The notes beneath the pieces were generated by a model. That model did not search any database, was not told where the DNA came from, and saw only the letters and a list, made by a program, of their open reading frames with translations. From positions 1 to 64,000 of the forward strand of contig JACRBH010000199.1 of NCBI GenBank assembly GCA_016234535.1: a stretch of 64,000 bases of DNA, written 5' to 3'. Position 1 is the first letter of the stretch. Each line of letters begins with the position of its first letter. The position numbers and the translations under genes are program-made. This document shows, piece after piece, positions 50,480 to 63,051 of this stretch. Source of the stretch: Chloroflexota bacterium. GTDB taxonomy: Bacteria; Chloroflexota; Anaerolineae; Anaerolineales; Villigracilaceae.

Positions 50480-52444
50480 ATGACTGATCAAATGCCTGAG
50501 TTGGGGGAGAATATCAGGAACATTCGGCGCTTCTTTACTTTTCTAGGCATCTATTTTCTCCTGGTCAGCCAATTTTTGATTTTTTCAAACCCGATAATTG
50601 ATAACGTGGTAATTCCCCCCTACACATGGCTGGCCGTTTTCGGCGTGGTAATTTTGATGGTGGGTCAACTAATTCGCCCGGTCTTATTTTTACAAAAAAT
50701 ATCCACCTGGTTCATTTTTCAGGAAAGAGTATTTTGGATATTGGCCTCATTCATGCTGTCTCTTTTGGCGGCCGGGGCAACTGTAAATTTTATGCTGTTT
50801 ACCCGTGTTAATTACATTCCTGTGATTACGATCTGGCTGCTGAGCGCCGCGGCTTATGTTTTTGCGTTTTTCGATGTGTCCCTTGAGACAAGTATTGTGC
50901 TTGCATGGATAAAAAAGAATCGCAACGAGATTTTTTGCGTGTCTGTTGTGGCTTTGTTTGCTGCCTGGCTTCGCCTTTATCGGCTGGGAGAGATTCCACG
51001 CATCTTGGATGGCGATGAAGGGTTGATTGGTCTTGCGGCCCAGTCGACAATTAGTGATTTGCTTGCCAATCCCTTTTCTCTATGGGAAAACTTTGGCGCC
51101 ATGTATTTGCAAATAATCAACCTTTCCATAAGAATTTTTGGAGTCAATGCTTTTGCACTACGATTGGTGCCGGCCATTGGGGGGATACTGGCTATTCCGT
51201 CACTATATCTTTTGTCACGCTGGATCGGTGGGCGAAGCATTGCCTTAATCACGGTCATCATCCTGGCTTTCTCACATTCACACATCCATTTCAGTCGTAT
51301 CGCTTCTGTCGCGTATATTCATGGGACCTGGCTCGTGCCTCTTGAGCTTTATTTTTTGATTAGCGGTTTGGAAAAAAAGGAATCCTGGAGAACAGCCGTC
51401 AGCGGCATTCTGTTGGCGATACACTTTTCGGTATATCTGACCTCCCAGGTCATTATGGCGCTTGTGCTGGTTTATATGCTGATCGCATTTCTGTTTTATC
51501 GCCCATGGTTCAAGCCCCGCTTAACCCAGGCTGTGGTTTTTTGGGGTGGTTTCCTGATTACCATCCTGCCGTCGGCATTTTATATATACCTCAGCCCCAA
51601 TGAATTTCTCGATAGAATGGCGCAGAACGGCACGTTTCAATCCGGCTGGCTTGAAAATACCATGCAGTTGACAGGTCAAAGCGCCATTGAAATCCTGTTC
51701 GGACGATTTATGCATGCCTTCCTTTCATTGACCTATTATCCGGCTGTTGATTTTTATGGTTCTCCAGCGCCTATGATGAGCATGGTCTCCAGCACCATGT
51801 TTCTGTTTGGGCTTGCCATCGCATTGTGGCGGATTCGAAACCCTGCCTACCTGCTTTTGAATGGTTATTTTTGGGCGTCCACGTTTTCAGTGGGAATATT
51901 TGCCATCCCTCCATCTGCAGATTCCTATCGTATGTTAATGGCTCTGCCCCCGGCACTTCTTATGGCAGCTTTAGGGCTTGAGCGGATTCTTGAAATGTTG
52001 ACATTGGATCCAAAGAGTTCGCGCACTGCTTATATGTTTTCTGTCTCAGCCATTCTGGCCAGCCTGCTTGCTTTTAACATATGGACATATTACGGTGATT
52101 TTGCCGGTCGCTGCCGGTTTGGCGGCGACCTTATTGGGCGTTTTGCATCCTATCTCGGCGGTTACGTTAAAACTATAGATAATGAATTGCCGGTCTACCT
52201 GCTAAGTAACAGCTCGTATTTTTATGGCAGCCACGGCTCAACAGATTATCTGGGCGAGAGCAGAAAGATAACGAACTTTCCAGACCCAATTGATACGTTG
52301 AATCCAGTCCATGGAGAAACCATCATCGCGAGCCCGGAGCGCATTTCCGAATTGGAAGACTGGGCGCGAGCCCATCCCGGCGGCGAACTTCGTTATCAGT
52401 ATGATTGCAGCAATACCATTTTGCTGGCATATCGGGTCCCTTAG
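50480..52444 (+). CDS. Glycosyltransferase family 39 / PMT-like membrane protein
   Basis: ORF 654 aa; many TM segments; RLYRLGEIPRILDGDEGLIGLAAQ (PMT-2-like DxE loop). Confidence 0.85.
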   Translation: MTDQMPELGENIRNIRRFFTFLGIYFLLVSQFLIFSNPIIDNVVIPPYTWLAVFGVVILMVGQLIRPVLFLQKISTWFIFQERVFWILASFMLSLLAAGATVNFMLFTRVNYIPVITIWLLSAAAYVFAFFDVSLETSIVLAWIKKNRNEIFCVSVVALFAAWLRLYRLGEIPRILDGDEGLIGLAAQSTISDLLANPFSLWENFGAMYLQIINLSIRIFGVNAFALRLVPAIGGILAIPSLYLLSRWIGGRSIALITVIILAFSHSHIHFSRIASVAYIHGTWLVPLELYFLISGLEKKESWRTAVSGILLAIHFSVYLTSQVIMALVLVYMLIAFLFYRPWFKPRLTQAVVFWGGFLITILPSAFYIYLSPNEFLDRMAQNGTFQSGWLENTMQLTGQSAIEILFGRFMHAFLSLTYYPAVDFYGSPAPMMSMVSSTMFLFGLAIALWRIRNPAYLLLNGYFWASTFSVGIFAIPPSADSYRMLMALPPALLMAALGLERILEMLTLDPKSSRTAYMFSVSAILASLLAFNIWTYYGDFAGRCRFGGDLIGRFASYLGGYVKTIDNELPVYLLSNSSYFYGSHGSTDYLGESRKITNFPDPIDTLNPVHGETIIASPERISELEDWARAHPGGELRYQYDCSNTILLAYRVP

Positions 52445-52451
52445 AGGAGAA

Positions 52452-53186
52452 TTGGATCCGAACGAATATGAACTAATGTATCAGGTTGAGGAACGCCATT
52501 GGTGGTATCAGGGAATGGAAGTTGTCACGCGTGCGGTGCTCAATCGCTGGGCACCTATTCCACAACCAAGGATTCTCGATGCAGGCTGTGGAACGGGCGC
52601 AGCCATGACAACCTACCTCGCAGAATATGGAAAGGTGACAGGCGTGGATTTATATCCACAAGCGTTGGATTTCTGCCGCAAGAGAAAAGCTCTCCGCCTT
52701 GTCCGCGCTTCTGTTCTTAACCTGCCGTTTGCTCCTGCTTCCTTTGAGCTTGTCACCAGCTTTGATGTTCTTTACGAGCGGGCTGTCTCCAGTGATGCCG
52801 CAGCCATGACTGAACTTTTCCGCGTACTGACTCCAACCGGACGCATCCTATTGCGCCTGCCCGCCTATGATTGGCTGCGCGGTCAGCACGATAAACGCGT
52901 GCATACAAACCGCCGTTATACAAAAAAACTAGTCAAGGAATTGCTCGAGCAAAGTGGTTTTGTCGTAGAACATCTTTCCTATGCAAATACGTGGCTTTTT
53001 CCTTTGGCTGTGGTAAAAAGACTAGGTGAAAGAATTTTCCCGCCAAAAGATAACCAATCTGATCTTGCAATGAATGCGGGCATATTCAATAATCTTTTGA
53101 AATTTATTCTCGCAAGTGAAGCCCCCTTTGCGGCGCATACCTCCCTGCCTTATGGATTGAGCGTGATTGCGGTGGGCAGAAAATGA
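52452..53186 (+). CDS. Class I SAM-dependent methyltransferase
   Basis: PRILDAGCGTGAAMTTYLAEYGKVTGVDLYPQALDFCRKR; TTG start with agaggaga RBS. Confidence 0.9.
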   Translation: MDPNEYELMYQVEERHWWYQGMEVVTRAVLNRWAPIPQPRILDAGCGTGAAMTTYLAEYGKVTGVDLYPQALDFCRKRKALRLVRASVLNLPFAPASFELVTSFDVLYERAVSSDAAAMTELFRVLTPTGRILLRLPAYDWLRGQHDKRVHTNRRYTKKLVKELLEQSGFVVEHLSYANTWLFPLAVVKRLGERIFPPKDNQSDLAMNAGIFNNLLKFILASEAPFAAHTSLPYGLSVIAVGRK

Positions 53187-59456: not shown

Positions 59457-59589
59457 TTATTTTCTCCTTGCTTTCTTTCCATTACAACGCTGGAGATTAT
59501 AGCGTGGTTGACAAGGCGGGACAAGCCTGTGACACGTCATGTTATAATTTTCTAATATTAGTAGAAAAAAGGTGACTGTCACCTGAATT

Positions 59590-59844
59590 ATGGAGAATCC
59601 CATGCTAAAGATCGAGATTGTCTATTGCGCGGTTTGACATTACACCAATCGAGCCGTGAGCTTGATGGATGAATTGCTCAAAGGATACGAGCACGTCATT
59701 GAATCGGTGGCGTTAATTCCCTCGGACGGAGGCAGGTTCGAGGTAGGGGTGAACGGGGAACTGGTCTTTTCCAAGTTGCGGTTGAAGCGTCACGCAGAAG
59801 CGGGCGAGATCGTCGATATTATTCATAAATTGGTTGAAGGATAG
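59590..59844 (+). CDS. SelW/Rdx-family selenoprotein with in-frame UGA (Sec) at 59635-59637
   Basis: MENPMLKIEIVYCAV-U-HYTNRAVSLMDELLKGYEHVIESVALIPSDGGRFEVGVNGELVFSKLRLKRHAEAGEIVDIIHKLVEG*; CxxU in the position of SelW CxxC/CxxU, same frame before and after the TGA. Confidence 0.88.
59648..59666 (+). promoter_or_regulatory. Candidate bacterial SECIS hairpin
   Basis: atcgagc-cgtga-gcttgat: 7-bp stem (one G-U) with G in the 5-nt apical loop, about 19-21 nt after the UGA. Confidence 0.65.
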
Positions 59845-59851
59845 ATAGAGA

Positions 59852-60838
59852 ATGGCAAAAAAAGGCAGAGTGTTTTCGGGCGCGCGCCCGACGGGTCGTC
59901 AGCATCTCGGTAATTATTTGGGTGCGATCAAGAATTATGTTGGTATGCAGAATGATTATGAATGTATTTACTGCATTGTGGATGTCCATGCGCTGACCAC
60001 GGTTGAGACCACGCAGGAACTGAAACAGAATACGCTGGAGATGGCGCTGGATTGGCTCGCGGCCGGTATTCGCCCCGAGGATTCCATTGTCTTCGTCCAG
60101 TCGCATGTGCCGCAGGTGATGGAATTGCACACCTATCTCTCGATGGTGACGCAGTTCGGCAAGCTGACCGATCTGCCGACTTTCAAAGAGAAGGTGCGCC
60201 AACAGCCTGAAAACATTAATTATGGGCTGGTCGGGTATCCCGTTTTGATGACCGCGGACATCGTGCTTTACAAGACCGATATTGTCCCGGTCGGCATTGA
60301 CCAGGCTCCGCATATCGAGTTTGCGCGCGAGATTGTGCGTTCCTTTAATTATCGTTATCATACGAAGGTGCTGGTCGAGCCGCAAGTGAAGCATACCGAA
60401 GTGCTGAAAGTACTCGGCATTGACGGCAAGGATAAGATGGGCAAGAGTTTGAACAATCATATCGAACTCGCCACCACGCCCGAAGAGACTGTCAAACGGG
60501 TCAAGGAAATGGTCACCGACCCTGCGCGCCTGCGCCGCACTGACCCGGGCAACCCGGACATTTGCAACGTGTTCACCATGCATAAACTTTTTTCCCCGCA
60601 GGATGAAGTGGATATGATCAATGTCGAATGCCGCAAGGCGGGCATCGGCTGTGTGGATTGCAAACTTCGCTTTGCCAATAATTTGAACAAACACCTTGAG
60701 CCTTTCCGCGCCAAACGCGCTGAACTCGCTTCCGATCCAAATAAGATTCAAGACATATTGCACGATGGCGCAAACCGCGCCCGCGCCATCGCCGAGCAGA
60801 CCATGATCGAAGTGCGCGAGGCGATGCAGTTGCCATAA
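59852..60838 (+). CDS. trpS: Tryptophanyl-tRNA synthetase
   Basis: ORF 328 aa; [23 protein letters not shown] (HIGH-like), DKMGKSLNN (KMSKS-like). Confidence 0.97.
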
Positions 60839-62274: not shown

Positions 62275-63051
62275 TCAGGGAATCACATTGGAGCGCGATG
62301 TGCTCTCGGCACTCGCATCTTTCGGGACCCATAGCTGGGCATCTGTTTCGACAGCCATTGCCCCCGCCAGGAGCATATCCGCCGCGTCTTTCTCCGTCCA
62401 CACACCGCCGGCGCCGATGACGGGGATCTCAAGGATCGCCGCCGAGCGGACAATATCCAATGAGCGCGGAAAAAGAGATCGGCCATACAGCCTGCCAGTG
62501 ACCATTTCATTATTGTTCATCAACGCGCCGCGCGGACTTGAAATGCTGATCGCCGCCGCGCCTCCCTGAATCAATCTCGACCCCAACGATAATACCTGTT
62601 CAGTGGGGAGTGAAAATATCAACGGCAATTCACCAGCGCACATTTCCAAATTCAATAGAATAATATCGTCAGTTAATAATGGGGCGAAGCCAAGCTCAAC
62701 GGCCATCACGTTCTCGATGTTTTCAAGGCTTCTCACCATTTGCTGGGCCTCTTCAGGGCGGTCAGCCATCAGGTTGACGATGATGGGCAAGTCAGCGCGG
62801 TTCCAGCGTGCGGCATGTTTTTTGAGCACAGAGGATAGCCCGGGATTCGGCAGGCCTGTATGCAGCAGGAATCCGCCGGGGAATTGGATCAAAGCCGGTT
62901 GGGCAGTCGGCAGGCGCGGGCGGAGAGAGATCGGATTCGTAATGAAGGCGCCAAATGAATCCAAAGGAATCCCACTGCGCGGGTCCGGCGCGAATCCCAA
63001 TGATCCCGCCGCATTCATGATTGGTTTGCTAAAATAGAGGTCGCGTTTCAT
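62275..63051 (-). CDS. Dihydroorotate dehydrogenase-like TIM-barrel protein
   Basis: ORF 258 aa; FSKPIMNAAGSLGFAPD, FITNPISLRPR, LPNPGLSSVLKKHA, IPVIGAGGVWTEKDAADMLLAGAMAVE. Confidence 0.8.
   Translation of the reverse strand: MKRDLYFSKPIMNAAGSLGFAPDPRSGIPLDSFGAFITNPISLRPRLPTAQPALIQFPGGFLLHTGLPNPGLSSVLKKHAARWNRADLPIIVNLMADRPEEAQQMVRSLENIENVMAVELGFAPLLTDDIILLNLEMCAGELPLIFSLPTEQVLSLGSRLIQGGAAAISISSPRGALMNNNEMVTGRLYGRSLFPRSLDIVRSAAILEIPVIGAGGVWTEKDAADMLLAGAMAVETDAQLWVPKDASAESTSRSNVIP

What the first reader, a model, noticed from the sequence alone, without database searches (positions are those of the whole stretch)
59590..59844. Unannotated SelW/Rdx selenoprotein with in-frame UGA and candidate bSECIS
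Seen: the 62-aa ORF at 59656 in the supplied track is only the 3' part of a longer frame. Reading through TGA at 59635 gives MENPMLKIEIVYCAV(U)HYTNRAVSLMDELLKGYEHVIESVALIPSDGGRFEVGVNGELVFSKLRLKRHAEAGEIVDIIHKLVEG, with the Sec in the redox CxxU position of the Rdx/SelW family. A hairpin (atcgagc-cgtga-gcttgat) with G in its apical loop sits about 19-21 nt after the UGA. Established: bacterial SECIS elements lie just downstream of the UGA with a conserved apical-loop G. The family is known; this locus would be mis-called by standard gene finders.
Basis: partly seen in the sequence, partly recalled or inferred. Interest (0 to 1): 0.88.

Follow-up and report, generated by a model that had tools for sequence, protein, structure and literature searches.

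The report
SelW-like selenoprotein gene beside trpS
A short bacterial gene that standard gene finders cut in two is in fact a complete gene for a known kind of selenium-containing redox protein, in which a UGA "stop" codon is read as selenocysteine with the help of an RNA hairpin just after it.

Summary
Window 59602-59844 (+) encodes an 80-aa Rdx/SelW protein with in-frame UGA at 59635-59637, at the second position of the family's CxxC/CxxU motif. The window's own MAG carries selC (tRNA-Sec, anticodon UCA), selA, selB and selD (selD itself has an in-frame UGA). In 151 homologous loci, nearly all from the same order (Anaerolineales, Chloroflexota), the column is TGA 146 times, TGC 5 times, never another codon. 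Sequence after the UGA is under purifying selection (dN/dS 0.08-0.17). A bSECIS-type hairpin follows, stronger than synonymous recodings of the same peptide give. Corrections and additions: (1) the likely start is ATG 59602, not 59590; (2) the hairpin exists in two registers 4 nt apart (loop GU at UGA+21/22 in the window's family, +25/26 in most other Chloroflexota), the window's apparently derived; (3) the gene sits directly upstream of trpS in 143 of 148 order-level loci, in 0 of 30 loci outside the order. SelW-like bacterial selenoproteins have been known since 2005, so this is a new member of a known kind: ordinary and well supported. No expression or selenium evidence was available.

The parts
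59602..59844 (+). rdx/selW-like selenoprotein gene, 80 aa with Sec at residue 12 (ATG 59602 to TAG 59842-59844)
   Evidence: Pfam PF10262 69.2 bits, E 3.5e-19; TIGR02174 CXXU_selWTH 58 bits, above cut-off; conserved ATG 11 codons before UGA in relatives
59592..59596 (+). probable Shine-Dalgarno sequence GGAGA, conserved in close relatives
   Evidence: read from sequence; upstream regions of relatives
59626..59637 (+). TGC GCG GTT TGA: redox motif C-A-V-U; the Sec-UGA is 59635-59637
   Evidence: column is TGA in 146 and TGC in 5 of 151 loci; aligns with the second Cys of CxxC in PDB 2p0g
59648..59666 (+). bSECIS-type hairpin, register A: 7-bp stem, apical loop CGUGA with GU at UGA+21/22
   Evidence: synonymous-recoding test and register classes; folds at -6.5 (stem alone) and -10.2 kcal/mol (59638-59679)
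59852..60838 (+). trpS (tryptophanyl-tRNA synthetase), 7 nt downstream of rdx, likely co-transcribed
   Evidence: Pfam tRNA-synt_1b 224 bits; TIGR00233 293 bits; adjacency in 143 of 148 loci
59570..59584 (.). AGGTGACTGTCACCT, one copy of a dispersed palindromic repeat, in the rdx 5' leader
   Evidence: 48 matches of its 13-nt core in the own genome against 1 for the reversed control

Best explanation
This is a genuine Sec-containing Rdx/SelW-family gene. Its UGA at 59635 is decoded as selenocysteine by tRNA-Sec and SelB bound to the hairpin at 59648-59666, giving an 80-aa thioredoxin-like protein with a C-A-V-U redox motif. It is probably expressed from an rdx-trpS transcript. Shown by sequence: the frame, the family, the Sec/Cys column, the Sec machinery in the genome, purifying selection after the UGA, and a hairpin under selection beyond coding. 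Inferred: actual Sec insertion, co-transcription and the thiol/selenol redox function.
For: Rdx 69 bits. selC, selB, selD and selA in the same genome. Column TGA 146, TGC 5, nothing else, in 151 loci. 239 of 400 genomes of the order have Rdx; most listed matches carry one in-frame TGA. dN/dS after the UGA 0.08-0.17 against 8 relatives. The hairpin exceeds synonymous recodings (mean z -2.3, n = 116), while the 5 Cys forms have no comparable hairpin at that place. The loop begins 17 nt after the UGA, within the published 16-37 nt range. UGA is an ordinary stop elsewhere (52311-53186 and 62275-63051 end in TGA), so this is not a general code change.
Against: No experimental evidence. The 7-bp stem alone scores -6.5 kcal/mol, short of the -7.5 threshold, which is met only with its extension (-9.7 to -10.2). 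If upstream bases are free, a competing fold that pairs the UGA region is more stable (-13.2), though a ribosome at the UGA should exclude it. Three of 116 homologues lack a clear hairpin in either register by my simple search. Covariation counts are inflated by relatedness: on a trpS tree only 1-3 well-supported independent pairs remain, all in the expected direction or neutral.
Confidence: 0.96

Rival explanations
1. The gene is a pseudogene or sequencing error: the UGA is a real premature stop and the 3' piece is a remnant.
For: Gene callers see only the 62-aa downstream piece; the genome is a fragmented MAG of 84% completeness.
Against: The same TGA is at the same codon in 146 of 151 loci from many separate assemblies, with no other codon there except Cys TGC. 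dN/dS after it is 0.08-0.17.
Confidence: 0.01
2. The UGA is decoded by something other than Sec insertion, such as Trp by near-cognate readthrough or a UGA-reassigned code.
For: The gene lies beside trpS, and UGA readthrough by tRNA-Trp is a known background process (general knowledge).
Against: UGA terminates other genes of the window. The only alternative residue in relatives is Cys, never Trp. A complete Sec machinery and a bSECIS hairpin are present.
Confidence: 0.02
3. The hairpin is a by-product of coding constraint, and the true SECIS is a different or larger fold such as the one pairing the UGA region.
For: A more stable fold exists when upstream bases are included; the E. coli fdhF element includes the UGA in its stem (general knowledge).
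Against: The hairpin beats synonymous recodings. Codon choice differs with register: Val GTG plus mostly AGC/GGC in A; C- or T-ending codons plus AGT/GGT in B, so that the loop GU is kept either way.
Confidence: 0.05

Closest known systems
Bacterial SelW-like selenoproteins (Rdx family, PF10262; TIGR02174 CXXU_selWTH)
   Same: Same family by HMM, same CxxU motif, Sec-UGA early in a gene of about 80 codons, bSECIS just downstream; described from Sargasso Sea, GOS and sequenced genomes (PMC1088965, PMC2398784, PMC1794560).
   Different: Motif CAVU. The gene stands directly upstream of trpS throughout this order. The hairpin is in a register 4 nt closer to the UGA than in most other Chloroflexota examined.
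SelTWH_Campy (NF041051)
   Same: Best NCBIfam score, 78 bits over 69 of 70 positions.
   Different: Below that model's curated cut-off of 88 bits, so not a member of that equivalog.
Selenoprotein W-related protein, PDB 2p0g, and mammalian SelW, PDB 2npb
   Same: Sequence match over residues 3-61 to 2p0g (E 1e-8), with the Sec column on the second Cys; weak match to 2npb (E 0.12).
   Different: 2p0g is a Cys form; 2npb is a eukaryotic protein whose mRNA uses a 3'UTR SECIS (general knowledge).

Membership tests
Rdx/SelW family (PF10262) | Profile match above the curated cut-off over the full domain | tested here: met
   69.2 bits against 22.6, profile positions 1-73 of 74
Rdx/SelW family (PF10262) | CxxC or CxxU motif near the N-terminus | tested here: met
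   C-A-V-U at residues 9-12 from ATG 59602; aligned to CxxC of 2p0g
Rdx/SelW family (PF10262) | Thioredoxin-like fold | not tested
   No structure was predicted; inferred from family membership
SelTWH_Campy equivalog (NF041051) | Score above the curated cut-off of 88 bits | tested here: not met
   78.1 bits
Bacterial selenoprotein | selA, selB, selC and selD in the genome | tested here: met
Bacterial selenoprotein | UGA conserved at a column otherwise Cys in homologues | tested here: met
   146 TGA and 5 TGC of 151 loci; outside the order 23 TGA and 7 Cys codons of 30
Bacterial selenoprotein | Sec physically present in the protein | not testable with these tools
   needs 75Se labelling or mass spectrometry
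bSECIS element (model in PMC13188914) | Apical loop 3-9 nt, stem 4-16 bp, G in the first two loop positions, 16-37 nt from the UGA | tested here: met
   loop CGUGA (5 nt, G second), 7 bp, 17 nt spacing; criteria
bSECIS element (model in PMC13188914) | MFE at or below -7.5 kcal/mol | tested here: met
   -9.7 for UGA+9 to +39 and -10.2 for UGA+3 to +44; the 7-bp stem alone is -6.5

The most novel reading that the evidence does not exclude
Sec insertion at this UGA regulates the downstream trpS. When selenium or charged tRNA-Sec is short, ribosomes stop at the UGA, leave about 200 nt untranslated and lower the coupled translation of trpS 7 nt downstream, so that one tryptophanyl-tRNA synthetase gene of these bacteria becomes selenium-responsive. 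The order-wide rdx-trpS pairing and the tight spacing allow this. Several relatives have a second trpS elsewhere, which would permit such a regulated copy. However, Cys forms of rdx keep the same neighbour, which suggests ordinary linkage.
Probability: 0.05. Interest if true: 0.6.

Novelty: new member of a known kind. Interest (0 to 1): 0.32.

Why it matters
It is a clean case of a selenoprotein gene that standard annotation truncates, and the same mis-call very likely affects many Anaerolineales genomes (239 of 400 sampled have the gene). Two comparative facts are worth keeping: the order-wide rdx(Sec)-trpS pairing, and a SECIS hairpin that moved 4 nt within a constrained coding sequence while keeping its loop GU. 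The second gives a natural series for testing how SelB tolerates UGA-to-loop spacing.

Tried and rejected
Rfam scan of the locus: only sub-threshold hits that look like chance, none at the hairpin. Co-occurrence of Rdx with the Sec trait across the order: uninformative, because selA and selB are each in 45 of 46 genomes tested, including those without Rdx or with Cys-Rdx. Raw Fisher tests of covariation at UGA+17/+27 and +14/+30 (p about 1e-10) were set aside as proof, because on a tree too few independent pairs remain. A general UGA reassignment was rejected because window genes end in TGA. The papers found do not mention a SelW-trpS neighbourhood, and the one Chloroflexi paper found that joins Anaerolineae with selenocysteine concerns formate dehydrogenases; the library is limited, so this is not proof that the rest is undescribed.

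Full report
Observation. Read with TGA as Sec the frame is open to TAG at 59842-59844; mechanical ORF calling shows only 62 aa from GTG 59656. The product is 80 aa with Sec as residue 12.

Family. The protein matches Pfam Rdx at 69.2 bits, three times its cut-off, over the whole profile, and TIGR02174 above cut-off. The UGA aligns with the second Cys of CxxC in PDB 2p0g, a Selenoprotein W-related protein.

Can the organism insert Sec? The window is on contig C145 of a 4.8-Mb MAG (84% complete). It holds tRNA-Sec (Rfam 66.3 bits; ARAGORN SeC, anticodon TCA), selB 339.6 bits, selD 351 bits with an in-frame UGA of its own (SACAGU) and selA 554.5 bits. UGA is an ordinary stop in other genes of the window.

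Relatives. In 400 genomes of the order, 239 have Rdx, and nearly all listed matches carry exactly one in-frame TGA. I fetched 151 loci from two searches (some genomes appear twice; 116 distinct sequences after the UGA). The column is TGA in 146 and TGC in 5; one row (L101) was misaligned automatically but has the TGA by eye. Named relatives are Anaerolineales/Anaerolineae MAGs and Thermanaerothrix, which places the window in Chloroflexota. Downstream of the UGA dN/dS is 0.08-0.17 against eight relatives, so the 3' part is translated in this frame. In a phylum-wide sample, 181 of 400 genomes have Rdx; of 30 fetched loci, all outside the order, 23 have TGA and 7 Cys codons.

The hairpin. I searched each sequence for a stem-loop meeting the published bSECIS rules (loop 3-9 nt, stem of at least 4 bp, G in the first two loop positions, 16-37 nt from UGA; PMC13188914). 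115 of 116 have one, 110 at -5 kcal/mol or better. Compared with random synonymous recodings of the same peptides the real ones are more stable: mean z -2.3, median p 0.025, 69% under 0.05; for the window p = 0.023. Of the 5 Cys forms none has a comparable hairpin at this place. In four of these the gene is in the orthologous place next to trpS, so Cys goes together with absence of the hairpin.

Two registers. 84 sequences put the loop GU at UGA+21/22 (register A, the window: CGUGA or GUN loops), 29 at UGA+25/26 (register B: GGUCU, GUY, GUG), 3 neither. Synonymous codon choice differs accordingly: in A, Val is GTG (76 of 84) and the next codon mostly AGC/GGC; in B the codon before ends in C or T and Ser/Gly is always AGT/GGT. 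On a trpS tree, five changes between A and B are needed; the window's family (f1) is A wherever it could be classified, and the other families of the order are almost all B. Of 23 TGA loci outside the order, 21 also have their loop at +24/25, so B looks ancestral and A derived. This is an inference from a quick tree with modest support. Covariation between stem positions is strong in raw counts, but relatedness leaves few independent pairs, so I do not rest the case on it.

Neighbourhood. rdx is followed on the same strand by trpS in 143 of 148 loci with enough sequence, usually with a gap of a few to some tens of nt (7 nt in the window); four loci with TGA and one Cys paralogue lack it. Among 30 loci outside the order none has trpS in the fetched flank (flanks of up to 1.5 kb). 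Several relatives have a second trpS elsewhere; the own MAG shows one. Co-transcription is likely from the spacing but not shown; a TATAAT-like sequence lies upstream of the leader, with no convincing -35.

Function. SelW-like proteins are thought to be redox proteins because of CxxU; the function was described as unclear (PMC1088965). I infer a small cytoplasmic redox protein. The trpS link may be mere operon convenience: the Cys forms keep it.

Novelty. SelW-like is among the commonest bacterial selenoprotein families (PMC1088965, PMC2398784), and Sec has been proposed as its original form (PMC1794560). The locus is a new member. The register change and the order-wide trpS pairing were not found in the papers available here, which is a limited library.

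Noticed in passing
window 59570-59584; L061 1121-1149; L068 317-345: AGGTGACTGTCACCT in the rdx leader is one copy of a dispersed palindromic repeat: the 13-nt core GTGACWGTCACCT has 48 matches in the own genome against 1 for the reversed control, often in inverted pairs 16-46 nt apart.
   Followed up: partly
G011, G103, G236, G264, G051, G332, G295: Several Anaerolineales genomes have two full-length trpS genes; in those that carry rdx one copy is rdx-linked and one is elsewhere. Why two are kept is not known.
   Followed up: partly
L101 2850-3200: In one MAG (JACRMH, three Rdx matches) the rdx gene near a contig end has an internal in-frame duplication of about 30 codons that includes part of the SECIS stretch; it may be a strain-mixture assembly artefact.
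   Followed up: partly
L021 about 1531 (G000:C218): selD of the own genome is itself a selenoprotein gene, with an in-frame UGA in SACAGU.
   Followed up: partly
G282: L093 and L094: One relative has both a Sec-Rdx next to trpS and a second Cys-Rdx elsewhere.
   Followed up: partly
G051, G146, G262 (same genus): Some nearly complete genomes of the genus lack Rdx altogether but keep selA and selB.
   Followed up: no
L071 (G304:C270:223-441): One relative's Rdx match is reported with a TAA besides the TGA; possibly a sequencing error or a decayed copy.
   Followed up: no
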